64,000 bases of DNA. It comes from Histomonas meleagridis (taxonomy: Eukaryota; Parabasalia; Tritrichomonadida; Dientamoebidae). Under the pieces are notes generated by a model, which saw only the letters and a list, made by a program, of their open reading frames with translations, was not told where the DNA came from and did not search any database. Positions 26,804-49,548 of this stretch are shown here, one piece after another (position 1 is the stretch's first letter; each line of letters begins with the position of its first letter). The position numbers were made by a program, and so were the translations under genes. The stretch is from NCBI GenBank assembly GCA_020186115.1, contig WSYJ01000033.1, positions 248,001-312,000 on the forward strand, given 5' to 3'.

Positions 26804-26930
26804 TTTGTAAGGTCATAAACCTGACAGACTTATTCAAAAATTGAAAGCATTTTTTGTAACAGTATCAATTTGTTTGAAAGATTTATGAGATGTCAAATAT
26901 CCGGTTATATTGATATCGGCAAATAAGCAG

Positions 26931-29900
26931 ATGAAACCAAATTCTAATGAAATCGCAATTGATGCTCTCAATGCAAAAATTTCATTAAGTTTTTCTTCTT
27001 ATTTACAATCAATTATTAAGGAATTGGCATTTTATAAAATCACTTCTCTGAATACAAAATTTTTTGATTTTGTAAGTTCTTTTCCATGCGTCGATGAACC
27101 AACTTTAACATCCATTCGTAAATGTATTTCTCTTGCTGAAAATCAACCAGAATCATGTTTTCCGAAAATGTTTTCTTATTTTGTACCAATAGATTTAGAT
27201 ATTACTAAACCAATTTCAGCTTCAAAAATTGCATCGACCCATTATATATCACGTCTTAAATTAACAGAGACGCAAAAGTCAGATTTAATAATTCGTTCAC
27301 TTTTATTCATATTTTCTGATGGTATTATTGCAACTATTCTAAAACAATTTTTTGAAAGTAAAAATCGCAATCTAGAAGATGATTTATCATTTCTATTTGA
27401 TTACTTCTTTTCATATTATACAACACCCGAACAATTTTCTACTAATCCACTTATTGGTGTACTTAAGCAATTTCATGCACGAAAATATGAAACAGTTTTA
27501 TATCAACTATCATTAATTAATCCTCCAAAGACATATTCCTTATTAGTCAGAGCATTAAATGAAATGCCTAAATTCCAAGAGTCTGTCACATTAATTCTTA
27601 TGCTCTTTAGTTCTATTTCTACAAAAGGAATGGAAGCAGAAGACGTGTTAAATCTTGGAAACCTCAACTCGTTCAGAAAAGTATTGAATCTAATTGAATA
27701 CAAACCGAAATTGAGTAATCAGCAAAAAGCCGCTTCGTATTTTCTTTCGAATCTTGTTTCTAGTGAAATAACTATTTCTTTAGAGAGATCTAAATCTGAC
27801 CTCATACGTTTAATTGAACAAAAAGCTCTTCGATCACAAAATTCGCCAGCTTCGATACCAATTTTAGCCACTATATTATGTCTGAAAGCCGAAAGTTTTG
27901 AAAGTGAAATTACTACTGAAATGATATTACAAAACTCATTTAAATTATTAGAAGAATTTCAAACATCATCATTAATTATTTATGGATTTACACAGTTAAT
28001 AAATGGGAAAACATTATTAAATCGATGTAATAAACCAGTTGTATATGAAAAACGTAAAAGTATATTAAATGATGAACAAATTAATTATTGTTATCAAAAG
28101 ATATTTTCATATGGAAAGAATTCATCACAAAAAGAACTTCAATCATTTATAATCCAAGATATTGTTAATGATTTCCCATTATTTATGGAGAATCAATTCC
28201 AAAATTTCAAGAAGCCATTGTATATAACTAATAATGGAAATATATTATTTGGAATTGTTGGCACTGTTTTATCAATTGATTTTCTTAAGACGAATTATCC
28301 AAATGAAATTAAAACATTAAAAGAAGACTTTAATAAAATAATTCAAAATTTAATAAAATCAAATCCTCCAAATGTTGGATCGAATATTTATTCAATTTCA
28401 ATATTCCCTTGTAAACTTAAAAATATATTAAAATCAACAAAACCAATACCTGCAACATTAACTAATATAAAAAGTTTTAATGATATTAAAATATGGAAGA
28501 AAATATTCGATGTTAATGAAGATTTAAACTTTTTTGTACAATCAACAGAAAACCCAATAAATACAATATTTACATTAGAGAATGATGAAACCATTAATTA
28601 TATGTTTCAAATCATACCAAAACTTGATTATTCATTAGAATTAATAAGTTCTATTTGTAAATATATTTATGATAAATCACCTAAGAAATCAGCATTAGCT
28701 TGTCGAGTAATACAATTAGTGATCAAAATAAATTATAATAAAACAGAAGAAATTTTAATGAAATTAATCGAAAATATACCAACAACTAATGAACAATTAT
28801 TTATACTTATAAACTTATTAATTTCCATTTTTTATGTACTTAAAAATAAAGTTACAGAAGAAATTATAAAAATCGTTTCACCAATTATAATATTTGGACT
28901 TTGTTCTTCATCTTATTCAATACGAACTAATGTATTTAAATTAATCGAATTAATTCCACAATTATTACAATTCATAAAAGAAAATCCACAAAACTTTTTC
29001 GAAAGTTTTATTATTAAAATGTATAAAATGATTACATTTGATTATGACATCGGGAAATTATTATCAGTTCCTTATCATTCATTTAGAGAATTTGGTTATT
29101 CTAATTATGAAATTTTATATCATATATTTTTATCAATTCTATTTAGAAGAATGAATTCTAATCCAAAAATCCAATACATAATTCCGAATACATTAAATTT
29201 CATTATTACACAATTTAATGAAACATTTGATGAACTTAAAACTAAAGATATTATGTTATTATTAAACATGGCAACATTTATTATCTCGAATGGTACAATA
29301 GAATTAACAAATACAAAAGAATTTAAGAAAATATTTGAAATTTTACCATTGATATCTGATAATCAAATTTTGTTTGATTCATTTGTTTCATCAATTTCGA
29401 TACAATTATCATCTACATTACTTATTAATATTATGACATATAATGATACATTTATTCAAGGATTAACTTATACAAGTCGAATTATTTGGGAGAATTATCA
29501 AGATACACCAATAGTTGCAATGAATACAATATTACCATTATTTGATAAATTAATCCAAATATTCGACGAGAAGAATATTATTTATTCGAAGTTAATCTTA
29601 CCAACTAAAATTAAACAAATTAAAATGAAAAAATATTTGATCGATATATTAATATTAATATCAGATATATTTAAGAAATTTAAAGAAAATCATAATGAAA
29701 ATGTTTCAGGACCTTTTATGCGTTCTTCATTTTCAGAGCCAATTGAAGATAAATTTAATATAAATTATGAAAATTGGTACTTTTTCATATTTAATTTATC
29801 ATTAGATGAAAATGTCGAAATTAAAAATGCGGCATTTAGAGCATTTTCGAATTATTGTTCTGTTGCTTCGATTAATGATCAAACGTTTAATATCTTTACA

Positions 29901-32627
29901 AATAATTTCTCATTAATAGCTAAAAATAGTGTCGAAACAGCAATAAGTATAGTATCGCGTTCATATCAAACGTTTATACCATATTTATTAAAGAATTCTC
30001 ATCAAAATTCATCATATTTCATATGTATTGCATCACAATTTGAAGACTTTGTTTCTGTTAATGATATTATTTCATTCATTGAAGAAAAGTCTTTGTTACG
30101 AATGAACCAAAATGATAAAGAATTCTCACAATTAATATATAATAATCTTGGTTATTTATTAGCTAATTCTTTATTATATTTGTCTGATAAATCTGGTTGT
30201 CAAAAATATTCATTAAGAATTATCAAAAGTATTTCATTTTCATTTTGTTTAATTAAAAATAATTCAAAAGATTTTATTAAACTTATTAAATATTTCATTA
30301 AAAATAATAAAAACGATTTTTCATTTGAATCTTTGCTGACATTAAATGGTTTACTCAGTAAAGCATTCAATTTCTGCGCCGAACAATTCCTTTATGCATC
30401 GTTAAAAATTTTATCTGAAAAATATTATTCATTCTTTGTAAGGTTATTAACAGAATGGATTTATAATATTAAATTAATAGAGACACAAGAAATAGGTATT
30501 GTAACTAATGGAGAGGCAAGTTTTATATCATTTTCATCATATTCATTTATTGAAATGTTATTAAATGCATTATTTAAAGAATCAATTGAAGTGTCATCAA
30601 CAAATATAATTGATGAATTAGCATCAAATGAAGATAATTTACAAGTTATGTTTGTTATTTGTTTATATAATTATGATAATCTTCATGATAATTCATTACG
30701 ATTACTTCAATATTTATGTCAAAGATTTCCTCATTTAATTACTTATATAAATCAAATATTAAGATTTAAATATTGGTATTATCAACAAATACAACTTCAT
30801 AAATTTGATCAATCATTTGATATCAATAAATTTATGGAATTTTTAGGAAAAAAAGAAGAACCGGAAGAAAACAAAGAAAAAAATAAAAAGAAATTAGAGC
30901 CAATTATAGATGAATATAAAAACATTACAAATTTCGTAATAGAATTAACACAATTAATTGATACTTATGATACTTTACCATATGTAATTTCATATTGTTT
31001 AATAATCCAACAAACAGAAATCACTAAAAAAATATTAAAAAATATTTTCGGAACTGAAAACCCAACAAATTTAATGGTACAACGAAAACTTGACAAAAAC
31101 CAAAAGAAATTATTCTTTGAGTCATGTTTCGAATGGTGTTCATCATGTGGCGACATCAAAATAGCGAACAAAGCGATTTTTATTGCATTAAATAATATAA
31201 CACATTCAACACCAGAAATGATTAATATTTTAATACGTACTTTAAGTATAATAATCACTTTAATTAAAGAAAAGAATTCATCGACAATAGTTCGACATAA
31301 TTATTTAATATTTGCTGATGATTATTCAATTGACATGAAAACACTTTATGATTACATTGCAAATATTCTTAAATTACTTTCCATATTAAATTTGTTATTA
31401 GAGAAACCTCAAGAAAAAGTCTTTTGGATAATATCCGAATTTTTATTAGCTTCTGATCATGAATTTAATGGAATATTCGATGTAACTATTAATGCGATTG
31501 AAACATTTTTAGATAAAGTTAATGAACTTAATCACATACCGAATAATTATGAAGGATTTCTTAATAAATTCGCTTCTGTTGATTTGTTATTAGATCCACG
31601 GAATTTACCGAAATCATTAATATCATTTTGTAGATCGATATTAAAACTTGCGATACTTGGTAAATATGAAGTTATTGTCGGATCATTTAAAGATAAATAT
31701 TACATCAAAAACGCAATTGCAATTACAATACTATTTTTAATACCTTATTTCGCTACTTATTGTGATAAAAAGTTATTTGATGAATATTCTAAAATTGTAT
31801 CAAACGTTATAAATATTACACCAATTTGGAAAGTGTTCCGTGAGAATTCGATTAATATAAATGAAACAACTTTCATTAAAGAACTTATGAAATTAAATAT
31901 TCCAAATTTAATGCCATTAATTTTAAGGATTTATGCATTAATGATTAAAAACGCACCAATTTGTACATATTCGATTTGTACTATTTGCGTTGAAATGCTT
32001 TCAATTGATGATTGTAATGTTTCTTATGAGAATTTCGGTAGAATTATTAATTATGCAATTAAAGATAAAGATGAAAATAATAATTCGATAGAGTGTAAAC
32101 TTCTGAAAGTTTATCAGAAAAAGGCACCTTTTTGTAAGCTGGCAACGTATCCACCGCCGAACAAATTCCCCGTCAAAAAGATCATTGAGAAGTTTATACC
32201 AGAAAGTTTCGAGGCAAACAAAGAAATGAATACTTTGGATTCAATGGTTTATTTGCCGCCGTTTTACCCTATCGATCAAACTTTAATAATTTTACCCTTT
32301 TCAGAACGTATTATGCAAAATTGTTGTAGTCATTATAAAGTTATACCTTTTACTAAATGGAATGAAATATTATTTAGTGTTAAATCTATTACAGTTGATC
32401 CCGAAGAAATTCATGAAACTAAATTTGTATTTAATATTAATGAAAAAATCATAAATGAATATGATTCAAATATAAAACGAATCCAAAATAAAGGTAAAGA
32501 TAAAAATAAAGTAAATGATGTCAAACAAAATAATTATGACATAAATGATTGTTTGAAAATGTCAAATAAATGTTTCTTACCAACTTTAAACGATATTGAT
32601 AAATTTGGTGAAGAAATATTTGGATAA
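26931..32627 (+). CDS. Very large HEAT-type solenoid, Furry/Tao3/Mor2-like
   Basis: A 1898-residue, almost wholly helical protein. The N-terminal 500 residues follow the order of the Furry (Fry/Tao3/Mor2) cell-morphogenesis region: SFSSYLQSIIKELAFYK...FFDFVSSFPCVDEPTLTSIRKCISLA, then NPLIGVLKQFHARKYETVLYQLSLI (compare the Furry stretch on F-x-S-V-x-x-R-F), and later SIPILATILCLKAESFESE...MILQNSFKLLEEFQTSSLIIYGFTQLI, which parallels Furry's W-P-V-A-Y-P-L-x-x-x-L-L-C-x-S-P block. Furry proteins scaffold NDR/LATS kinases in polarity and mitosis. The match is by eye and weak at residue level, so another HEAT giant cannot be excluded. The open frame begins with TTG at 26910; the first ATG is 26931, behind CCGGTTATA at 26901-26909. 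It is unbroken over 5.7 kb. A TOR-family gene follows 95 bp downstream on the same strand. Confidence 0.55.
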   Translation: MKPNSNEIAIDALNAKISLSFSSYLQSIIKELAFYKITSLNTKFFDFVSSFPCVDEPTLTSIRKCISLAENQPESCFPKMFSYFVPIDLDITKPISASKIASTHYISRLKLTETQKSDLIIRSLLFIFSDGIIATILKQFFESKNRNLEDDLSFLFDYFFSYYTTPEQFSTNPLIGVLKQFHARKYETVLYQLSLINPPKTYSLLVRALNEMPKFQESVTLILMLFSSISTKGMEAEDVLNLGNLNSFRKVLNLIEYKPKLSNQQKAASYFLSNLVSSEITISLERSKSDLIRLIEQKALRSQNSPASIPILATILCLKAESFESEITTEMILQNSFKLLEEFQTSSLIIYGFTQLINGKTLLNRCNKPVVYEKRKSILNDEQINYCYQKIFSYGKNSSQKELQSFIIQDIVNDFPLFMENQFQNFKKPLYITNNGNILFGIVGTVLSIDFLKTNYPNEIKTLKEDFNKIIQNLIKSNPPNVGSNIYSISIFPCKLKNILKSTKPIPATLTNIKSFNDIKIWKKIFDVNEDLNFFVQSTENPINTIFTLENDETINYMFQIIPKLDYSLELISSICKYIYDKSPKKSALACRVIQLVIKINYNKTEEILMKLIENIPTTNEQLFILINLLISIFYVLKNKVTEEIIKIVSPIIIFGLCSSSYSIRTNVFKLIELIPQLLQFIKENPQNFFESFIIKMYKMITFDYDIGKLLSVPYHSFREFGYSNYEILYHIFLSILFRRMNSNPKIQYIIPNTLNFIITQFNETFDELKTKDIMLLLNMATFIISNGTIELTNTKEFKKIFEILPLISDNQILFDSFVSSISIQLSSTLLINIMTYNDTFIQGLTYTSRIIWENYQDTPIVAMNTILPLFDKLIQIFDEKNIIYSKLILPTKIKQIKMKKYLIDILILISDIFKKFKENHNENVSGPFMRSSFSEPIEDKFNINYENWYFFIFNLSLDENVEIKNAAFRAFSNYCSVASINDQTFNIFTNNFSLIAKNSVETAISIVSRSYQTFIPYLLKNSHQNSSYFICIASQFEDFVSVNDIISFIEEKSLLRMNQNDKEFSQLIYNNLGYLLANSLLYLSDKSGCQKYSLRIIKSISFSFCLIKNNSKDFIKLIKYFIKNNKNDFSFESLLTLNGLLSKAFNFCAEQFLYASLKILSEKYYSFFVRLLTEWIYNIKLIETQEIGIVTNGEASFISFSSYSFIEMLLNALFKESIEVSSTNIIDELASNEDNLQVMFVICLYNYDNLHDNSLRLLQYLCQRFPHLITYINQILRFKYWYYQQIQLHKFDQSFDINKFMEFLGKKEEPEENKEKNKKKLEPIIDEYKNITNFVIELTQLIDTYDTLPYVISYCLIIQQTEITKKILKNIFGTENPTNLMVQRKLDKNQKKLFFESCFEWCSSCGDIKIANKAIFIALNNITHSTPEMINILIRTLSIIITLIKEKNSSTIVRHNYLIFADDYSIDMKTLYDYIANILKLLSILNLLLEKPQEKVFWIISEFLLASDHEFNGIFDVTINAIETFLDKVNELNHIPNNYEGFLNKFASVDLLLDPRNLPKSLISFCRSILKLAILGKYEVIVGSFKDKYYIKNAIAITILFLIPYFATYCDKKLFDEYSKIVSNVINITPIWKVFRENSININETTFIKELMKLNIPNLMPLILRIYALMIKNAPICTYSICTICVEMLSIDDCNVSYENFGRIINYAIKDKDENNNSIECKLLKVYQKKAPFCKLATYPPPNKFPVKKIIEKFIPESFEANKEMNTLDSMVYLPPFYPIDQTLIILPFSERIMQNCCSHYKVIPFTKWNEILFSVKSITVDPEEIHETKFVFNINEKIINEYDSNIKRIQNKGKDKNKVNDVKQNNYDINDCLKMSNKCFLPTLNDIDKFGEEIFG

Positions 32628-32722: not shown

Positions 32723-35700
32723 ATGTCCAAAAGCATCGAACCCATAATGAGCAGAATTTCAGATTACATAGATAATCTGGAGTGGAATTCATTTAGTGAT
32801 GACAGGCCGCATGTTTGGAAAATCTTATATGACGAATTTACAACCACTGATAATCAAAATGATTTACAAAATAACATCTGGAATTCAGCTCATAACTCAC
32901 TTAGAAGACACGTTAGTGCACCTAGAATGAGATATCAATCTCTTTTGGTACTTTCGTTTCTAATTGAACTTGAAGATGATCATTCTCGTTTATATCAATT
33001 AACAATAGATTTAGAGAAAATTTTACCAATTGATTCAATTCCTATACTTGAAGGCATAGCCCATATTTTTAAACGAATTTCACAAATTATATCTCAACCA
33101 TTTTTACCACGAATTTATGATCGTTGTATTCAGTTTTTATCAAACCGTTTAACATCTTCGGCAGTACAAACTTCTGTTTTTTTATTAGACAAATTATCAC
33201 CAAATGTATTTCCAAATGATTTACCAAATTTATTATTAAATGCTTTAAAATTTCCGGAAGAAATTATTCAGTCCAAAGCTGTTGATTTATATTTTCATTG
33301 TTTATCCAATTTTTCATATTCTGATGAATTCATCAAAGGTACAATTTCGATGTGTATTGCATCCATTCGATCTAATGCGAGTTATGGACATCTACTTATC
33401 ATTAAAGGGCTTATAGAGCGTGATTATGATGTTGTCATATCGATGATCAGTGAAATTTTTTCTGCGATTACAAATTTGTTGATTAAAAATCCAAAACCAA
33501 ATTATTTATCAGTTTATTATTTTTTATGTAAACATCCTAAAACGCATCAATTTGCGCTTACATTTAAAGACCAAATTACAAATGTATTAAATGAAATCAA
33601 AAACAACAAAGATATAACAGTTCGAAAATATATAGTTAAAATATCGAAACAATTTCCAAATGATTTTGGTAAATTTTGTTATCAACAATCGAATACATTA
33701 ATACCAGAACAACCCGATTATTATTTCAAACTCATTTCAGTGAAATTTGATGAATATGTAAACAAAAATGAAATAATGGAAAAATATAACAAAATGAATT
33801 TATCCAAAAATTTAATAAAATCGTCGAAATTATTTATGAAATCATTTCCACAATATACATTTAAATTAGTGAAAATATTAGTACAAAAAACAAAAGAAAA
33901 TTTGGAATCGAAAAATCCGATTTTTACATATTTCTTAATACGAAAAATGGAATCGAATCCAATTTTCCCATTTGAACAATATTGGGAACCATTATTTAAT
34001 ACATTCTTAACAAAAAAAGATTTAAACATTAAAACAAAACAAATATTAATAAAAGCGTTATTAACTATTATTAAAGAATCGAATTTCTCACAAGAAGGAC
34101 GACTTATCCAATTATTATTTGAAATAGAGAATGAAACGAAACCAATTATCATAACATTATTAAGAAATATTGATGACAACTTATTAAAATATTTCATAAA
34201 TAACGCATTGTTATATTTAGGAAAGTTTTATTTCCAATATTCTTCACGATCAATACAAAATTCGACAATTTTATTATTCCAAAGATTACGAAGAATTTGT
34301 CCATTATCAACTTTTGAGTTTTTTATGATAATATTAAATACAAATCCTATTTCATTTAAACAACATTCATCAATTATCGAACATCGTAAAATTATTGAAG
34401 TTTGGCCTTTAATCATTGATTCAGCAGGTGATTTTTTAATACCATTTTCGAATGATTTATATAATTTTTTTATTGATTTAATTAATTCGAAATTAAATCC
34501 AAGTCAAACATTAAGTGAAAGAATTAATTTCCATCGAATAGAGAAACAAGATATACGAATTCATATTGCAGCGATGAAATGTATTCAAAAACTAATTGAA
34601 TATCATTATAAATATGATTTACAAATTATTGTTGATTCAGTTGTTAATCAATTATTAACAAATTATAATGAAAATATACAAAAAACAGCGTTAATAACAT
34701 TACATTCATTATTTAAGAATTTCGGAAATGAAAACATAAATTTAAAAGAATTACATTCGAATTTATATAATTTTATGATGAAATCGAAAAACCAAAAAAT
34801 TTTATATTTATTATTACGAGTTTTAGGTACAATTGGACCTAATGATCCAGTTAATTTTCATTTATCAAATTCTGATGTTGATTCAACTACACCATTATTT
34901 GATAAGCCTAAACGTGAATATTATTATTTACGATTTGTTATGAATTATTTATTAGATCATTTAAAGAAACAAGTTAAGAAACCAATTCTATTAGAATATT
35001 CAGTACATTTAAGTGCCATATTATATATCTTTCAATTTGATTCGAATAAATCTTCACCATATTTCCCTAAATTAATATCAATATTAAAAGATTTAATAAC
35101 ATTTGAAAGTTGTAGTTCTATATTTCATATAATTCGTTCGATAGTAATATATGCTGAAATTGATATATATCCATATGCTGAAGCAATATTATCAATGTTA
35201 AAACCTTATTTACAACCAAATACATCACAAATGCAATTATTAGAAGCTATTAAAACATTAAGTTCAATCATATTTAAAATGAAATATAATTTCCGTAAAT
35301 TTACAATGGAAATATTTTCAATGGTATTAACATTATTATCATTAAATTTGGATATGGATATTGATTTATATTTATTACAAATATTAACACATTTAGTTAT
35401 ATATGCAGGAGGTTCACAACAATTATTCTTTCGACAAATAAAAATTCATGCATTAAAAAAGAATTTAATAAGTCCAAATGCTTTAAGTTTTTTAGGACAA
35501 GTAATATCGAATACTAATTATGATGATTTATGGATTCCTTCAATAAATTTATTAATTACATTAATAAATGAAACTCAAAAACCATCCGAAAGTATAATAT
35601 CATTATTAACTTTACTTGCTACAAAATGTAAACAATATATACCTGAAACTTATTATTATTTAATACAATCTAAACCAGATAATTATGAAATTACTTCTGA

Positions 35701-38700
35701 TCCTTATCGATTAAGTAATCCACCACCGATATATGTTTTTACATTAGAAGAAACTATTGATAAAAAGAATGCGATAATCCAATTTGATAAAAATAATTGG
35801 GAAACTTGGCTATTACATATATCACAAAACTTAGTATTATGTAGTAATTCACCTGCAATTAGAGCATGTCATCCATTATTACAATTATCACGTACATTTG
35901 AACAACAAATATTCCCATTAATTATTATATCTGTCTGGGAAATAGCTAATAATGAAGGACGGAATAGTTTATCTAATTTATTATTAAGTGTAGCACAAAA
36001 CTCTGAAATACCAATTGAATTATTAACTATAATTAGTAACACGTGTGAAATAATGGATAGAGCTGGTTATAAATTGTTCCCTCAATTAGAAGTAAGTTGT
36101 CGAGTTGCTGAACGTTCTGGACATTTATTTAGATCTTTACGATTTGCAGAATGTTTATCATATAATGATGACACTATTAAATATGAAATGATTCGAATAC
36201 TTTCAAGTTTACAACAACGTGAATCAGCTTTAGGGATATTTTATGTAACACCTAATGCTAAAAATAACCCGAAAATATTACAAGATCTTTCATTATGGAA
36301 TCAAGCGAAGAAGTTTTATTCGCCTGATAAAAGTAATTCCGATTTATATGAATATATTTATTGTTCTTTTAGGATCGAAGATTGGAAATCAATTGAAGAA
36401 TTATCAATAAAATTCGATGAGTTATCACCCGAAAATAAGAAGAAATGCGGACTTTTCTTTGCTATTAGTGCGTATTTATATGATAAAGATTATCAAAAAT
36501 TTATTAATGATCAAATGGATAATAATACTTTCGAATTAATATGGAGAACAATTTTTGCAATTTCTTCAAATCAATTAAATTTGGCTAAAAGTTTAATAGA
36601 AAAAGGTATGAGAATTAATTCATTTAATTTCGCTCCTTTTTTGACTGGTAATTATCAACCAACTTTGCCTCAAATAATTAACGCTTCGATTTTCGAGGAA
36701 TTAATTAATGTAATCGATTGTAAATTAGGTTTAATCGATAAAAAATTCATCGTTTCAAAATGGGAAAAAAATAATTTATGGAAACAAACGGATTTTTTGG
36801 ATCAACAAATATTTTTTTGTCTTAGGAAACTAATTAAACCTGATGATGACTTAATTATAGCTTTAGAATTCTTAAATGACTTAAGGAAACAAAAACAATG
36901 GGAAATTTATGACAACGCTTTTGAACGTTTAGTCGGAAATAATTTGAATGACGATAGAGTACGTTTATTGATCGCACAAGTCAATTTTGATAGAGAACAG
37001 AAAAAGGACTTCACTGAGATTGAAAACGTTATAAAAACTACATCAAATTCAGAGGTTTATGCCAACGCTGTCTGTTTTTATGCTACAAGATTATCTAATT
37101 CTAATCCTGAAGTATTAAATATGTTACAAAACATTATCAAAAGTAACCCAAATAAAATTCGGCCTTGGAAACATTGGACTTATGGGAATTTAAATCTATA
37201 TAATTCTACAAAAGAAATACAATATGCAAATAATGCAATTAAAGGTTTTATTCAACTAATTAAATTAAATGGACCAAATTTACATTACTTATGTCAACTA
37301 TGTTCTTTATGTTTTAATCATGAAACAACTATTACAACATTCTTTGAAGAACTTTCACCTGAATCAATTGAACAAATTGTTCAACAACTTTTAACTTATT
37401 TCGATAATCCATCAGAAACAGTTCGAAATAGTATTAATTCCATATTATCTAAACTTGCAGATCAATATATTCAATCACTTTTATTCCCGCTTTCATTTAT
37501 GGTTAAGATCCAGAAAAACTCAAAAAATTTAATTGATTTTTATGATAAAATTCATAAAACTTATCCAAATTTAATAGAAGAAACAAAAGTTATTTCAGAT
37601 GGTTTAATTAGAATATCTTTAACAGATACAGAACTTTTAATTTATAAAATAGGGAGATTAATTAATAATAAATATAAAGACGAAAACGATTTTATAAAAG
37701 AAGTTCATAAAATTATGAAAATATTAAACCAAAATCATATGAAAATTGATGCACAAATTCTTGACAAAGAAATCATTGAAAAACTTGCAACGATAGATAA
37801 TCAAATACATTCAAATTCAATCGAAAATATTCGAAGTAAACTTATCAATATTTTGGATGAACTTCACCAACGTTTCGAAAAAATAAATGAAATTAATGTC
37901 GATGAAAATGTTCAACAATTAACTGATTCCTCACCTTATAGTATTGCTGTTCCTGGATTTTATAAAATGAATAACGAAGATTTTCCAAAAATTACTTCAT
38001 TTGTCAATATTGTTGAAATCATTAAAAGTATAAAATCACCAAGAAAGATACAAATTATAGGTAGTGATGGTAAAACTTATAAATACCTACTTAAAGGTAA
38101 AGAAGATCTTCGAGTAGATCAACGAGTAATGAAATGGTTTACATTAGCAAATTCTTTATTACATGATAACAAATACGGAGTTAAAATGGATTTATCAATA
38201 GAAAGTTATCCAATTATACCATTAGGTAAACATTCAGGTTTAATTGCATGGGCAGAAGGTGGAGATACATTATTCAAACTTATCAATCGATACATCCGTA
38301 TAACCAATCCTGATTGTCCGCAGGAAGAGAAAGAGCTTTTAGAAGAATATAATCTTCAACCAACTCCAAATAAGATCCGAACCAATATTCAAAGTTTAGA
38401 AATCTATCGCTCCCTGAAACAAATCTATCCCTCTGATTCCCTGCGTGAGATTATCTGGCTTAAGTCTCCCAATAGTGTTATTTGGTTTAGTCAAAAAACG
38501 AATTATGCTCGATCATTAGGATTAATGTCTATAGTTGGATATACCATTGGCCTTGGCGAGCGCAATCCCCAGAACATATTATATATGAAGCGGAACGGGA
38601 AAATTGTTCACATTGACTTCGGCGAATGCTTCGAGAAGTCGATGAAACGAAAACATTGGCCCGAAAAAGTGCCATTCCGATTAACGCCGATGTTAATCAA

Positions 38701-38986
38701 AGGTTTGGGCGTTAGCGGCGTTGAGGGAATCTTTAAAATGACTGCGCAATTCGTGATGACGTTGTTGCGTAAGAACAAGTCGACGTTACTTTCGTTCTTG
38801 AACACATTTGTGAGAGAGGACAAACAGTTCAACATAAGGTACAAAAGAGTTAACGACAAGTTAAACGGAATCGAAAATAACGAAATGGAACTAACGCCGG
38901 AGGAACAAGTTGATCACCTAATTAAAGAGGCGACGGACGAAATGAACTTGGCGCAAATGGGACTCGGATGGGCGCCGCACTGGTGA
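32723..38986 (+). CDS. TOR: TOR-family PIKK with altered catalytic loop
   Basis: A 2087-residue PI3K-related kinase. HEAT repeats fill the first 1000 residues and a FAT domain the next 600 (for example ALGIFYVTPNAKNNPKILQDLSLWNQAKKF). A degenerate FRB-like segment starts near residue 1627 (GLIRISLTDTELLIY). The kinase domain is TOR-type: IAVPGFY, RKIQIIGSDGKTYKYLLKGKEDLRVDQRVM, with the ATP Lys at 1791 and Asp at 1799; SLGLMSIVGYTIGLGERNPQN; and HIDFGECFE, with the DFG Asp at 1965. The end, LIKEATDEMNLAQMGLGWAPHW, is a clear FATC domain. In TOR the catalytic loop is GDRHPSN; here it is GERNPQN, so the catalytic Asp is Glu (1946) and the His is Asn (1948). Activity may be lost or reduced. The first ATG (32723) follows AACGGTTT at 32704-32711. 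The frame is intact over 6.3 kb. Confidence 0.9.
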   Translation: MSKSIEPIMSRISDYIDNLEWNSFSDDRPHVWKILYDEFTTTDNQNDLQNNIWNSAHNSLRRHVSAPRMRYQSLLVLSFLIELEDDHSRLYQLTIDLEKILPIDSIPILEGIAHIFKRISQIISQPFLPRIYDRCIQFLSNRLTSSAVQTSVFLLDKLSPNVFPNDLPNLLLNALKFPEEIIQSKAVDLYFHCLSNFSYSDEFIKGTISMCIASIRSNASYGHLLIIKGLIERDYDVVISMISEIFSAITNLLIKNPKPNYLSVYYFLCKHPKTHQFALTFKDQITNVLNEIKNNKDITVRKYIVKISKQFPNDFGKFCYQQSNTLIPEQPDYYFKLISVKFDEYVNKNEIMEKYNKMNLSKNLIKSSKLFMKSFPQYTFKLVKILVQKTKENLESKNPIFTYFLIRKMESNPIFPFEQYWEPLFNTFLTKKDLNIKTKQILIKALLTIIKESNFSQEGRLIQLLFEIENETKPIIITLLRNIDDNLLKYFINNALLYLGKFYFQYSSRSIQNSTILLFQRLRRICPLSTFEFFMIILNTNPISFKQHSSIIEHRKIIEVWPLIIDSAGDFLIPFSNDLYNFFIDLINSKLNPSQTLSERINFHRIEKQDIRIHIAAMKCIQKLIEYHYKYDLQIIVDSVVNQLLTNYNENIQKTALITLHSLFKNFGNENINLKELHSNLYNFMMKSKNQKILYLLLRVLGTIGPNDPVNFHLSNSDVDSTTPLFDKPKREYYYLRFVMNYLLDHLKKQVKKPILLEYSVHLSAILYIFQFDSNKSSPYFPKLISILKDLITFESCSSIFHIIRSIVIYAEIDIYPYAEAILSMLKPYLQPNTSQMQLLEAIKTLSSIIFKMKYNFRKFTMEIFSMVLTLLSLNLDMDIDLYLLQILTHLVIYAGGSQQLFFRQIKIHALKKNLISPNALSFLGQVISNTNYDDLWIPSINLLITLINETQKPSESIISLLTLLATKCKQYIPETYYYLIQSKPDNYEITSDPYRLSNPPPIYVFTLEETIDKKNAIIQFDKNNWETWLLHISQNLVLCSNSPAIRACHPLLQLSRTFEQQIFPLIIISVWEIANNEGRNSLSNLLLSVAQNSEIPIELLTIISNTCEIMDRAGYKLFPQLEVSCRVAERSGHLFRSLRFAECLSYNDDTIKYEMIRILSSLQQRESALGIFYVTPNAKNNPKILQDLSLWNQAKKFYSPDKSNSDLYEYIYCSFRIEDWKSIEELSIKFDELSPENKKKCGLFFAISAYLYDKDYQKFINDQMDNNTFELIWRTIFAISSNQLNLAKSLIEKGMRINSFNFAPFLTGNYQPTLPQIINASIFEELINVIDCKLGLIDKKFIVSKWEKNNLWKQTDFLDQQIFFCLRKLIKPDDDLIIALEFLNDLRKQKQWEIYDNAFERLVGNNLNDDRVRLLIAQVNFDREQKKDFTEIENVIKTTSNSEVYANAVCFYATRLSNSNPEVLNMLQNIIKSNPNKIRPWKHWTYGNLNLYNSTKEIQYANNAIKGFIQLIKLNGPNLHYLCQLCSLCFNHETTITTFFEELSPESIEQIVQQLLTYFDNPSETVRNSINSILSKLADQYIQSLLFPLSFMVKIQKNSKNLIDFYDKIHKTYPNLIEETKVISDGLIRISLTDTELLIYKIGRLINNKYKDENDFIKEVHKIMKILNQNHMKIDAQILDKEIIEKLATIDNQIHSNSIENIRSKLINILDELHQRFEKINEINVDENVQQLTDSSPYSIAVPGFYKMNNEDFPKITSFVNIVEIIKSIKSPRKIQIIGSDGKTYKYLLKGKEDLRVDQRVMKWFTLANSLLHDNKYGVKMDLSIESYPIIPLGKHSGLIAWAEGGDTLFKLINRYIRITNPDCPQEEKELLEEYNLQPTPNKIRTNIQSLEIYRSLKQIYPSDSLREIIWLKSPNSVIWFSQKTNYARSLGLMSIVGYTIGLGERNPQNILYMKRNGKIVHIDFGECFEKSMKRKHWPEKVPFRLTPMLIKGLGVSGVEGIFKMTAQFVMTLLRKNKSTLLSFLNTFVREDKQFNIRYKRVNDKLNGIENNEMELTPEEQVDHLIKEATDEMNLAQMGLGWAPHW

Positions 38987-45552: not shown

Positions 45553-48500
45553 ATGAAAAAGGCTGTTAAAAATGTGTTGATTACCGGACCTATTCCTCGC
45601 CAAATAAATCAATTCCTGGACAGTATGTTAAGCAACCCGGAAATAGAACCTATAGACGAATGTGACTTTGAAGTTTATAAAGATGAAAACAACTCACGTG
45701 TGTTCTTAACATATAGTTCTAATAATGTTTCACACTTTGAAAGTGACTATGAAAGCTTACCAAGGGACCTTAAATGCGAAGTATGTTGTTATGTTGTCAC
45801 AGCTTCATGTGACATAACAAAATATGCACAAATGATACAAGCACTTAAGAAGAGGATGAGAGTACTATATGTAATAACGAAATTAGACGGAAACCAAGAA
45901 AAGTTACAACAACAAATTTTAAATGAATTTGGTCAAGAAGAACAAGTGTTCATAGTTCAATCAATGAATAACAAGAATAGCATCCAAAGTATAATTAATA
46001 TTATAAATTCAGCAAATAGTGTCAATAATGTTCAGGCAAGACCACGTGCGGTAACTAATGTATCTTCTCAAAGGAAAAGCACTAAAATTGAGGAGTTGAG
46101 ACTTAAGTTCGAGCAACAAGAACAAAGTAACACACCAAAATATACATCATCATCACGTCCAGGTAGTGGTAACTATCAACCACCACAACCTGCTGCATAT
46201 CAACAACAAAAATCACCTGTATATCAACCACCACAACCTGCTGCTTATCAACAAAAAAGACCAGCTGTGTACCAACCACCACAGCCAGCTGCTTACCAAC
46301 AACAAAGACCAACTGTGTATCAACCACCACAACCTGCTGCTTATCAGCAATCACAAAGAAAAACACCAAGTCCACCTGTTCAAAGAAAAGAAGAATTCCA
46401 ACAAGAACAAAATAATCAAGCGCCACAAGCACGTGTTGAAAGAAAAGGAAGCATAATTGAACAAATGAAACAAAGGTATGAACAGCAAAATACAGAAAGC
46501 CAAACATCAAATTCATATCAGCGACAAACACAAGAAAGATATCCACCACAAACGCAAGAAAGATATCCACCACAAACGCAAGAAAGATATCCACCACAAA
46601 CACAAGAAAGATATCCACCACAAACGCAAGAAAGATATCCACCACAAACACAAGAAAGATATCCACCACAAACGCAAGAAAGATATCCACCACAAACACA
46701 AGAAAGATATCCACCACAAACACAAGAAAGATATCCACCACAAACACAAGAAAGATATCCACCACAAACGCAAGAAAGATATCCACCACAAACACAAGAA
46801 AGATATCCACCACAAACGCAAGAAAGATATCCACCACAAACACAAGAAAGATATCCACCACAAACGCAAGAAAGATATCCACCACAAACACAAGAAAGAT
46901 ATCCACCACAAACGCAAGAAAGATATCCACCACAAACACAAAGGACATATCAACAACAAAACGCATATCAAACAAGCACAAGTGTCTATCAACAAAAAGA
47001 AGATGAACAGGCAAACTCTGATAAAACGTCAAAGAAGTCTTTATTTAAAACAATGAAATCAATAATTCCCAAATTCCAGAAATCAAATTCGGACTCAAGT
47101 CATTATTATATTTTAGTCATTGGGGAACCAGGAGTTGGTAAGTCCACCATTATTGATACTGTATTATTAAACAAAGAATCAACTAAAACTGAAATTAATC
47201 CAGGTGAACCATTCCAATTTATCGAAAAATTCAATCTTTCGCTTACATTTGCTCGATATGATCGTTCTTTCTTAACTATTAAAGCTGAAGATTTCATGCG
47301 AGATGTTGAAAATGTATCACAACATGTTCAATTTTCTTTATGTTGGGCAATCACAGAGAAAAGTGGTCCATGCATCCAAATGAAGAAAGCAATTAAATTA
47401 CTTAAAGATAAAATGGAAATTCAAACATTTTCAATCTATAATAAGATCCGAAATATTAAAGAACTTGAACAACAAATGAATAAAAGCATGGCATTAAACA
47501 AAAGTGGAAATAATATGGATGACATGTGTATTATACCTGATTTTACTTCAGGAGCACAAAAGTCACAATTTGGTGAATCCATATCATCATTATTAGAAAA
47601 GAACATACAATATATTGGTAATGGTTCTGTAATTCGTAAACTGATAAAAGAAAGAGAAGATATATTCAAAGCTTCAAATGTTGAACAATATGAAAAGATT
47701 GATCTTAATGAACTTGTTGATGCACAAGCAAGTAGAGGTTATTCCCATTTAAATATATTAATCATTGGTCAAACAGGTGCAGGTAAATCATCATTAGTTA
47801 ATGCATTTTCAAATGCACTTTTTGGACAAAGTGTAGCAATCGAAAGTTCAACACAAAGTTGTACAATGGGAATCATTGAATATCCATTAAAAGGTTATCC
47901 TGTTACTTTAATTGATACGCGTGGATATGAACATGAAAAATTTTTAGTTAATAAGAGTCAAATTGAAACTGAAATCACTCGAAGACAACGAACAGGTAAA
48001 AAAGAAGATTTAATTCATATGATATTATATTGTTCAAATAGTACTGGCTCACGTTTAGTCGAAACAGAATTTGCAATTATTGAAGGATTTGCTCAAATGG
48101 GAATTCCAGTTATAATTATTGTAACCAAACAAATCTCAAAAAACAACAATTTGGAACAATCAATTAAAAATGATTATAATATACCGACATATAAAGATAT
48201 AAAAAATGCAGAAAAAATGGGCGTCGGGAAGCTATCATTAGAACTTATGAAAAACATTTGCGTAATTAGTGTTTTAGCTAAAGGAATGTATATAGATAGT
48301 GGACCAGTAAAAAGATTTATTCAACCAACAGGTGTACCACAATTAATTGATCTTTTAAGATATTATATTCCTGATTATAGAGTACTTATCGAGAAAATGA
48401 AATTAGAACAACAAAGTCATTTACCTGCGTTACAAAAAGCTTTAAGTGGAAGTCGCTTAAAACTTTTAAATATTTTAGTTATCGGTCAATCAGGTGTTGG

Positions 48501-49548
48501 GAAATCAAGTTTAATTAATCGATTATTTGGTTATGATATTAGTAAAGCAGGTTGTGGTAAAGCAGTCACTGATTGTTTAACAAAACATCAGTTACCTAAG
48601 TCATCACTTAATATATTTGATACTGTTGGTTTCGAATTAGGGAAACCTGAATATGTTGACGACATTAAATATTTAATATATCGAAGAAATGAAGATTCAG
48701 ATAATGCTTCTAAACATATTCATGTTGTCTGGTATATTGTAAATTCTGGATCAAAACGTCTTCAAGAACTTGATAAGAAATTAATATTATTCTTTAAGAA
48801 AAGAAATATTCCAATTATTATTGTTTTAAGCAAATGTATCGAAATGAATTCTGATCTTTATCTTTATTTAAGAGATGGAGTAATGTTTGATTTTAAAGTT
48901 CCTTCATATACTGATTTAATGAGTTGTTCTGATGATGAACGAGAACGCTTAATTGAAGAGAAAATCGCATGTGTTGAAACGAATTCAGTTGAAGAAGAAC
49001 TTCAAGAAGGTATTAAGATATGTGTATTTGGAATGAATGAATTACTTGATTTAACAAGTTTTTATTTACCTATAGCTGAGAAGATTTCATTACAAGCAGC
49101 ACAAAAGAATGATATCAATGATAAGTTTTCAAGTGCCGATTTATTTGTTGTTGATACATGGACTGATTATATTGAAGAAAAATGGGTTAAGTCAATTAAA
49201 TCATGTAAACATTTGTTGAAATACACAAGAGAACATATGCTTATCGAGGTTGCTGATGTTTATGGGTTGGATTGGAATACTTCAAACGCTGAATGGGTAT
49301 TCGATAAATTAAAAGAAGAATCTTCAAAATATGCAAGGAAAAATGGTAAGTTACAAGGATTCTATTTCCCTTTGATATCTTCATTGAGAACGAAATCAGA
49401 CGCAATAAAGTTTATCGCAAAAATAGGAAATTTGATCAATGAATCATTTAGGGAATTGTCATTGCAAAGATCAAGTATACCCGAGGAAAATGAAGAAATT
49501 GGACTTGACGAATTTTATCAAAAGCTAAAGGAAAGCTTGGAAGAATAA
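45553..49548 (+). CDS. Giant multi-G-domain GTPase with PQ-rich repeats
   Basis: A 1331-residue protein. Residues 1-160 are a GTPase-like domain whose P-loop is lost (ITGPIPRQI) but which keeps a G4-like ITKLD (108-112). Residues about 200-275 hold four copies of a 15-residue Y-Q-P-P-Q-P-A-A-Y-Q-Q-Q unit, and 325-460 seventeen copies of QTQERYPP; both are disordered. Three P-loop domains follow: GEPGVGKS (524-531, no clear G3), GQTGAGKS (739-746) with DTRG (788), and GQSGVGKS (978-985) with DTVGFELG (from 1023). In the last two the G4 position reads VTKQI and LSKCI, without the guanine-binding Asp. The C-terminal 200 residues are helical. The G domains resemble those of the neighbour at 43727, so the pair probably arose by duplication and may work together, for example as a membrane- or vesicle-associated assembly (inference). 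The frame is intact; the start is supported by an Inr-like site. Confidence 0.82.
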   Translation: MKKAVKNVLITGPIPRQINQFLDSMLSNPEIEPIDECDFEVYKDENNSRVFLTYSSNNVSHFESDYESLPRDLKCEVCCYVVTASCDITKYAQMIQALKKRMRVLYVITKLDGNQEKLQQQILNEFGQEEQVFIVQSMNNKNSIQSIINIINSANSVNNVQARPRAVTNVSSQRKSTKIEELRLKFEQQEQSNTPKYTSSSRPGSGNYQPPQPAAYQQQKSPVYQPPQPAAYQQKRPAVYQPPQPAAYQQQRPTVYQPPQPAAYQQSQRKTPSPPVQRKEEFQQEQNNQAPQARVERKGSIIEQMKQRYEQQNTESQTSNSYQRQTQERYPPQTQERYPPQTQERYPPQTQERYPPQTQERYPPQTQERYPPQTQERYPPQTQERYPPQTQERYPPQTQERYPPQTQERYPPQTQERYPPQTQERYPPQTQERYPPQTQERYPPQTQERYPPQTQERYPPQTQRTYQQQNAYQTSTSVYQQKEDEQANSDKTSKKSLFKTMKSIIPKFQKSNSDSSHYYILVIGEPGVGKSTIIDTVLLNKESTKTEINPGEPFQFIEKFNLSLTFARYDRSFLTIKAEDFMRDVENVSQHVQFSLCWAITEKSGPCIQMKKAIKLLKDKMEIQTFSIYNKIRNIKELEQQMNKSMALNKSGNNMDDMCIIPDFTSGAQKSQFGESISSLLEKNIQYIGNGSVIRKLIKEREDIFKASNVEQYEKIDLNELVDAQASRGYSHLNILIIGQTGAGKSSLVNAFSNALFGQSVAIESSTQSCTMGIIEYPLKGYPVTLIDTRGYEHEKFLVNKSQIETEITRRQRTGKKEDLIHMILYCSNSTGSRLVETEFAIIEGFAQMGIPVIIIVTKQISKNNNLEQSIKNDYNIPTYKDIKNAEKMGVGKLSLELMKNICVISVLAKGMYIDSGPVKRFIQPTGVPQLIDLLRYYIPDYRVLIEKMKLEQQSHLPALQKALSGSRLKLLNILVIGQSGVGKSSLINRLFGYDISKAGCGKAVTDCLTKHQLPKSSLNIFDTVGFELGKPEYVDDIKYLIYRRNEDSDNASKHIHVVWYIVNSGSKRLQELDKKLILFFKKRNIPIIIVLSKCIEMNSDLYLYLRDGVMFDFKVPSYTDLMSCSDDERERLIEEKIACVETNSVEEELQEGIKICVFGMNELLDLTSFYLPIAEKISLQAAQKNDINDKFSSADLFVVDTWTDYIEEKWVKSIKSCKHLLKYTREHMLIEVADVYGLDWNTSNAEWVFDKLKEESSKYARKNGKLQGFYFPLISSLRTKSDAIKFIAKIGNLINESFRELSLQRSSIPEENEEIGLDEFYQKLKESLEE
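46166..46348 (+). repeat. 45-bp repeat coding for VYQPPQPAAYQQQ(K/R)P
   Basis: Four imperfect 45-base units (the second one codon short) code for a Pro/Gln/Ala/Tyr-rich stretch. They lie upstream of, and are unrelated in period to, the 24-bp array. Confidence 0.85.
46525..46932 (+). repeat. 24-bp tandem array, 17 units of QTQERYPP
   Basis: Seventeen uninterrupted units of CAAAC[A/G]CAAGAAAGATATCCACCA, followed by a partial unit. The only variable base is the third position of the Thr codon. The order of A and G is A G G A G A G A A A G A G A G A G, largely an alternation, which suggests growth by 48-bp dimers. The array is also open in the other frames, which creates long false reading frames on both strands. 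Confidence 0.95.

What the first reader, a model, noticed from the sequence alone, without database searches (positions are those of the whole stretch)
38555..38620. TOR-family kinase with Glu and Asn in place of the catalytic Asp and His
The catalytic loop reads GLGERNPQN where TOR and nearly all PIKKs have GLGDRHPxN. The catalytic base is GAG (38558-38560, residue 1946) and the His position is AAT (38564-38566, residue 1948). The ATP-site Lys (1791), Asp 1799, the loop Asn and the DFG Asp (1965) are kept, as is a full FATC domain. The gene is otherwise intact over 6.3 kb, so this is not simple decay. It could be a nucleotide-binding pseudokinase scaffold or a TOR with unusual chemistry.
Basis: partly seen in the sequence, partly recalled or inferred. 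Interest (0 to 1): 0.8.

Follow-up and report, generated by a model that had tools for sequence, protein, structure and literature searches.

The report
TOR-like protein with altered active site
A poultry parasite with dozens of TOR-type kinase genes has one full-length copy whose two acceptor-handling catalytic residues are changed while its relatives keep them, so it is probably a non-catalytic TOR-type protein that arose in this lineage.

Summary
The gene at 32723-38986 (+) encodes an intact 2087-residue TOR-branch PIKK with the loop GLGERNPQN (Glu1946, Asn1948) where mTOR has Asp2338 and His2340. The ATP/Mg residues and FATC are kept. Glu/Asn is private: 137 of 137 other motif-bearing homologues examined keep Asp/His, including six orthologues, and so do the two nearest paralogues. 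So it is neither an ancient TOR variant nor the cell's only TOR: of 40 PIKK-type genes in this genome, 35 keep a complete active site. The kinase domain is the best-conserved part and models well as mTOR, so this is not general decay. Best reading: a lineage-specific TOR pseudokinase with its ATP site kept, serving as a non-catalytic subunit in an enlarged TOR-complex repertoire (20 Raptor-type, 9 Rictor-type domain matches). Residual activity through Glu is not excluded; nothing functional was tested. The search also met a separate pseudo-TOR subfamily (three genes here, three metagenomic relatives) that lacks the catalytic His, metal-binding Asn and DFG Asp. That is the more novel item.

The parts
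32723..38986 (+). TOR-branch PIKK gene, 2087 codons plus stop, one open frame (ATG at 32723)
   Evidence: best PDB match mTOR, 2.5e-89
32723..35680 (+). N-terminal HEAT-type region (approximate), including a below-cut-off mTOR_dom (PF11865) match
   Evidence: 22.2 bits, cut-off 27.6; alignment with relatives
35708..37630 (+). FAT-type region (approximate); part of it aligns with mTOR 1245-1657
   Evidence: PF02259 itself was not called in this protein but is listed for orthologues P0002, P0005 and P0006
38078..38818 (+). PI3/PI4-type kinase domain (PF00454)
   Evidence: 160.5 bits; model pLDDT 86.5, pTM 0.82; mTOR structures head the matches
38093..38095 (+). ATP-site Lys1791, kept
38558..38560 (+). 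Glu1946 (GAG) at the catalytic Asp position (mTOR Asp2338)
   Evidence: mTOR numbering from PMC8391992
38564..38566 (+). Asn1948 (AAT) at the catalytic His position (mTOR His2340)
   Evidence: mTOR numbering from PMC8391992
38573..38575 (+). metal-ligand Asn1951, kept
38615..38617 (+). DFG Asp1965, kept (motif HIDFG; its 20 closest relatives P0002-P0021 have DFS, DLS or DFT)
38687..38689 (+). Pro1989 in or just after the activation segment; Arg in every other clade member that has a residue there (at least 14 of 21)
38801..38803 (+). Asn2027; Asp in every other clade member that has a residue there (at least 14 of 21)
38891..38983 (+). FATC domain

Best explanation
A lineage-specific TOR-branch PIKK of Histomonas meleagridis that has changed the residue pair which positions and activates the phospho-acceptor hydroxyl (Asp to Glu, His to Asn), while keeping the fold and the ATP/Mg residues. 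Most likely it still binds Mg-ATP but transfers phosphate to protein poorly or not at all. It would work as a non-catalytic TOR subunit: its HEAT/FAT/FATC body would occupy Raptor- or Rictor-type partners, or pair with active TOR paralogues, and so tune an enlarged set of TOR complexes. Shown here: the residues, the intact frame, a confident mTOR-like model, privacy of the change in the sequences examined, orthology to Tritrichomonas genes with Asp/His, and the presence of many paralogues with complete active sites and of partner-type domains. Inferred: ATP binding, loss of transfer activity, complex formation and regulation.
For: Residues and intact frame. TOR branch: mTOR 303 bits, SMG1 162, MEC1 152, ATR 149, ATM 133. 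In SMG1 the two equivalent residues position the acceptor Ser, and mutation of either in SMG1, mTOR and other kinases inactivates (PMC7334022, passages). Roles of mTOR D2338, H2340 and N2343: PMC8391992 (passage). mTOR D2338A is kinase-dead: PMC2698930 (passages). Kinase-dead mTOR keeps some function: PMC5558967 (passages). ATP/Mg residues kept. The kinase domain is not diverging faster than expected: kinase/FAT tip-branch ratio 0.70, rank 15 of 22 clade members. Well-modelled mTOR-like fold. Paralogues with complete active sites and Raptor/Rictor-type matches supply possible partners.
Against: Glu keeps a carboxylate, so residual activity is possible, and I found no published test of Glu or Asn at these positions. 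All six orthologues are Asp/His, so no conserved scaffold role is shown; the change may be recent and neutral. At clade-invariant kinase columns this protein has 5 of 58 changed, more than 20 of the 21 other clade members (0-4; only P0021, with Asp/His, has more, 7 of 60), which may mean some loss of constraint. No expression, binding or activity data. Pfam detects no FRB or FAT domain in this protein.
Confidence: 0.58

Rival explanations
1. An active TOR kinase with altered chemistry: Glu1946 takes over from Asp and Asn1948 partly replaces His, giving a slow enzyme or one with changed substrate preference.
For: The carboxylate and all ATP/Mg residues are kept; the kinase domain is the best-conserved part of the protein (51-60% identity to the six orthologues against 41-47% in FAT); the motif after the loop is the standard HIDFG, while its 20 closest relatives have DFS, DLS or DFT and the 7 more distant ones DFG, a change that might accompany a rearranged site.
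Against: None of 137 other motif-bearing homologues uses Glu or Asn; mutation of either residue inactivates other PIKKs (PMC7334022, passage).
Confidence: 0.22
2. Early decay after redundancy: with dozens of PIKK-type paralogues the gene lost selection on catalysis recently and is drifting towards a pseudogene without any new role.
For: The change is private and absent from all six orthologues; Phe1928 to Tyr, Arg1989 to Pro and Asp2027 to Asn also hit clade-invariant kinase columns, 5 of 58 in all, second highest of 22; GC3 of the last 100 codons is 0.61, the highest of 18 PIKK genes measured, so local mutational or conversion bias may have acted there.
Against: 2087 intact codons; other active-site residues kept; no excess divergence of the kinase domain against FAT. 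Contrast L042, which has lost Lys, catalytic Asp and the DFG-type motif together and has a tip branch of 1.06 against 0.47 in L006, its sister at 71% support.
Confidence: 0.15
3. Sequencing or assembly error at the two codons.
For: No independent reads or second assembly could be examined here.
Against: Two separate changes at exactly the two catalytic residues, with Pro1989 and Asn2027 nearby; the stretch has one match in the genome at DNA level, so mixing with a paralogue is unlikely; the published assembly used long and short reads (PMC8529796, passages).
Confidence: 0.03

Closest known systems
TOR/mTOR (PIKK family)
   Same: Order of regions, size class, kinase fold, ATP/Mg residues, FATC; best match by sequence and first in both structure lists (ATR is within 1 Z unit)
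   Different: Catalytic Asp/His are Glu/Asn; FRB not detected by profile
TRRAP/Tra1, described as the only PIKK classified as a pseudokinase (start of abstract of PMC8926402, seen in the listing)
   Same: PIKK that would act without phosphotransfer
   Different: TRRAP scores only 27 bits against 303 for mTOR; this protein keeps the nucleotide-site residues
Tritrichomonas orthologues, e.g. TRFO_16184 (P0006) and M9Y10_014320 (P0002)
   Same: 48% and 44% identity; P0006's best place in this genome is this gene (1148 against 842 bits)
   Different: They have GLGDRHPNN or GLGDRHLSN, and HIDFS
Kinase-dead mTOR D2338A (laboratory mutant)
   Same: Changed at the same catalytic Asp position
   Different: Ala instead of Glu; the His position is not reported as changed in the passages seen (PMC2698930)

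Membership tests
TOR protein family, by descent | Closer to TOR than to SMG1, ATR, ATM, DNA-PK or TRRAP | tested here: met
   mTOR 303 bits, SMG1 162, MEC1 152, ATR 149, ATM 133, DNA-PK 80, TRRAP 27
TOR protein family, by descent | PI3/PI4-type kinase domain followed by C-terminal FATC | tested here: met
   both above the curated cut-offs
TOR protein family, by descent | HEAT and FAT regions before the kinase | tested here: met
   Met by alignment only: one search aligns 994-1388 with mTOR 1245-1657 (numbering of 5h64), one search aligns the whole length with relatives. The Pfam FAT model was not called and mTOR_dom is below its cut-off
TOR protein family, by descent | FRB domain | tested here: inconclusive
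   PF08771 not found in this gene (26 other places match), but the model aligns over 1-452 with mTOR 2024-2549, which spans the FRB
Catalytically competent TOR kinase | Catalytic-loop Asp and His | tested here: not met
   Glu1946 and Asn1948
Catalytically competent TOR kinase | ATP/Mg residues (Lys, Asp, Asn, DFG Asp) | tested here: met
Catalytically competent TOR kinase | Phosphotransfer activity | not testable with these tools
   needs an assay
TOR complex subunit | Binds LST8 and Raptor- or Rictor-type partners | not testable with these tools
   Raptor- and Rictor-type domains exist in the genome; LST8 was not searched; binding is inferred only
Pseudokinase (lacks one or several conserved motifs for nucleotide binding or catalysis; start of abstract of PMC4718504, listing) | Loss of at least one conserved catalytic residue | tested here: met
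TRRAP/Tra1 | Closest relative is TRRAP/Tra1 | tested here: not met
   TRRAP 27 bits against 303 for mTOR

The most novel reading that the evidence does not exclude
In tritrichomonad-type parasites, expansion of the TOR complexes has repeatedly produced TOR-branch pseudokinases (an older subfamily plus later single-gene changes, of which this gene, with its ATP site kept, is one) that serve as dedicated non-catalytic TOR subunits. They would be a kind of PIKK pseudokinase separate from TRRAP.
Probability: 0.45. Interest if true: 0.7.

Novelty: new variant of a known kind. Interest (0 to 1): 0.5.

Why it matters
TOR is usually one or two genes per cell and its catalytic residues are treated as fixed (recalled, general knowledge). 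A genome with 40 PIKK-type genes, 20 Raptor-type matches and five PIKK-type genes with changed active sites offers natural cases in which the structural and the catalytic roles of TOR may be separated. The paired Glu/Asn change with a preserved ATP site makes a clean question: can a PIKK work with Glu/Asn, or is this a non-catalytic subunit?

Tried and rejected
Conserved unusual chemistry: rejected, as all six orthologues have Asp/His. Sole TOR-type kinase of the cell: rejected. A second, closer Asp/His copy in this genome: none listed; the whole-length matches are only L040 and L022 at 36 and 34% identity (which scored 23 of 134 candidates; a search with P0006, 39 of 61 scored, agrees). TRRAP orthologue: rejected for this gene; for L024 and L026 no TRRAP chain is among the 22 and 23 matches at E 0.001 or better. 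Another Glu/Asn protein: the search with the catalytic-loop region gave 15 proteins, all with DRH. General decay of the kinase domain: not supported by branch ratios, though 5 of 58 clade-invariant columns are changed. dN/dS was not attempted, since the nearest paralogues are only about 35% identical. The sequence upstream of 16 PIKK genes and this one was compared by eye for a shared start motif: nothing convincing. Literature: of ten searches, eight were aimed at TOR/PIKK in these parasites or at PIKK pseudokinases; among the 4 to 20 rows listed by each, no title or abstract start describes TOR expansion or TOR pseudokinases in parabasalids. The library holds only open-licence PMC papers, and supplements were not seen: PMC3218828 annotated the T. 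vaginalis kinome in an additional file (passages), and PMC8529796 lists 609 kinases in a supplementary table (passages), so such genes may be tabulated there. The main text of PMC8529796 has no occurrence of PIKK, TOR or rapamycin. PMC12467227 says Trichomonas keeps both TORC1 and TORC2 (passage).

Full report
WHAT IS THERE. The window lies at C27:248001-312000 of a 43.3 Mb assembly. Two of its contigs are 3,384,422 bases (C120) and 673,467 bases (C63) long. These equal the largest contig and the N50 that Table 1 of PMC8529796 gives for the virulent strain of Histomonas meleagridis (passage), so the organism is taken as that poultry parasite. The published table has 187 contigs and 43.4 Mb; 121 contigs are held here.

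The gene at 32723-38986 (+) is one open frame of 2087 codons. Pfam finds the PI3/PI4-type kinase domain and FATC above their cut-offs, and a below-cut-off mTOR_dom match. By sequence mTOR is the best solved match (303 bits), ahead of SMG1 (162), MEC1 (152), ATR (149) and ATM (133). The loop reads GLGERNPQN with Glu1946 (38558-38560) and Asn1948 (38564-38566); Lys1791, Asp1799, Asn1951 and Asp1965 are kept.

IS IT PRIVATE? Of 508 homologues the best 120 were listed. The 27 aligned in detail all have Asp and His. Of the 127 proteins held, 124 carry the loop motif: 123 Asp/His and the window protein Glu/Asn; the three without it are P0122-P0124, discussed below. A search with the catalytic-loop region alone gave 15 proteins, 14 of them new, all Asp/His. 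The closest orthologues are P0002-P0006 and P0011 (39-48% identity): two from Tritrichomonas musculus, one from T. foetus, three unnamed. The clade that holds L022 and P0007-type proteins is split from them and from the window protein with 100% support in all three domain trees; P0014 lies outside that clade too, but its exact place is unresolved (81% towards that clade in the kinase tree, 48% towards the orthologues in FAT, not in the HEAT tree). The T. foetus protein's best place in this genome is this gene, 1148 against 842 bits. So the change most likely arose on the Histomonas branch.

THE GENOME'S OTHER PIKKs. Fifty PF00454 places were found. Forty are PIKK-type: 39 of them have a FATC match, and the fortieth, L043, has a 2134-residue frame. 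Of the 40, 35 keep Lys, Asp, His, Asn and DFG Asp. The other five are the window gene, L042 (Lys to Leu, catalytic Asp to Asn, DYK in place of DFG), and L024, L026 and L043. Not all 40 are shown to be TOR; ATM- and ATR-type members are probably among them (L021, L034 and L036 stand on long branches). The genome also has 20 Raptor_N (one a short fragment), 9 Rictor_V and 26 FRB matches. Counts from domain matches may be lower bounds.

HOW IT LIKELY WORKS. In PIKKs the catalytic Asp and His position and activate the acceptor hydroxyl; mutation of either in SMG1, mTOR and other kinases inactivates (PMC7334022, passage; residue roles in PMC8391992, passage). Glu is one methylene longer than Asp, and Asn cannot carry the charge that His can (established chemistry, no call). 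I found no published test of Glu or Asn at these positions. With the ATP/Mg residues kept, the simplest reading is a nucleotide-binding TOR-type protein with little or no phosphotransfer that acts through its large body. Kinase-independent mTOR function has a precedent (PMC5558967, passages). Partner choice is inference.

THE OLDER PSEUDO-TORs. L024, L026 and L043 (open frames of 2129, 2103 and 2134 residues) have loops of the type G.VD[ST]SP: they keep the catalytic Asp position but lack the His, the metal-binding Asn, the DFG Asp and the ATP-site Lys. L024 and L026 match yeast TOR2 best (111 and 79 bits), with no TRRAP listed; L043 was not searched alone. Three unnamed metagenomic proteins (P0122-P0124, 36-42% identity to L026) share the loss of His, Asn and DFG Asp and a shortened activation segment; in that alignment none of the six has Lys in register, but P0123 has a Lys one residue away, so its ATP site may be partly kept. 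The group is a 100%-supported clade on a long branch, and its position in the tree is not resolved (which held the three Histomonas genes only). This shared loss is firmer evidence of retained non-catalytic TOR-branch proteins than the window gene itself.

LIMITS. No reads, expression data, second strain or assay were available. The literature library holds open-licence papers only, and supplements were not seen.

Noticed in passing
L024 (G000:C40:1404000-1413900), L026 (G000:C40:2026400-2036300), L043 (G000:C71:343900-345300): Three TOR-branch-like proteins of about 2100 residues lack the ATP-site Lys, catalytic His, metal-binding Asn and DFG Asp; three metagenomic relatives P0122-P0124 also lack the His, Asn and DFG Asp, so a pseudo-TOR subfamily is conserved beyond this genome.
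   Followed up: partly
Own genome G000: TOR-complex parts are strongly expanded: 40 PIKK-type genes, 20 Raptor_N matches, 9 Rictor_V matches, 26 FRB matches.
   Followed up: partly
L042 (G000:C40:2071000-2072300): Another TOR-type gene with a broken active site: Lys to Leu, catalytic Asp to Asn, DYK in place of DFG; its tip branch is long.
   Followed up: partly
38540-38983: GC at third codon positions is 0.53-0.67 in 30-codon steps from about residue 1940 on, against 0.19 for the whole gene. The last 100 codons are above the gene mean in all 17 other PIKK genes measured (0.24-0.48, against 0.61 here), though in L010 and L012 the 5' end is higher still.
   Followed up: partly
L016 (G000:C59:84030-93970): An Asp/His TOR-type gene with an in-frame TAG; its C-terminal open frame is 594 residues.
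   Followed up: no
26910-32627: A 1905-residue open frame directly upstream of the TOR-like gene with no Pfam match above cut-off.
   Followed up: no
45553-49548: A 1331-residue protein with several P-loop/GTPase-like segments, two of which match MMR_HSR1 on their own.
   Followed up: no
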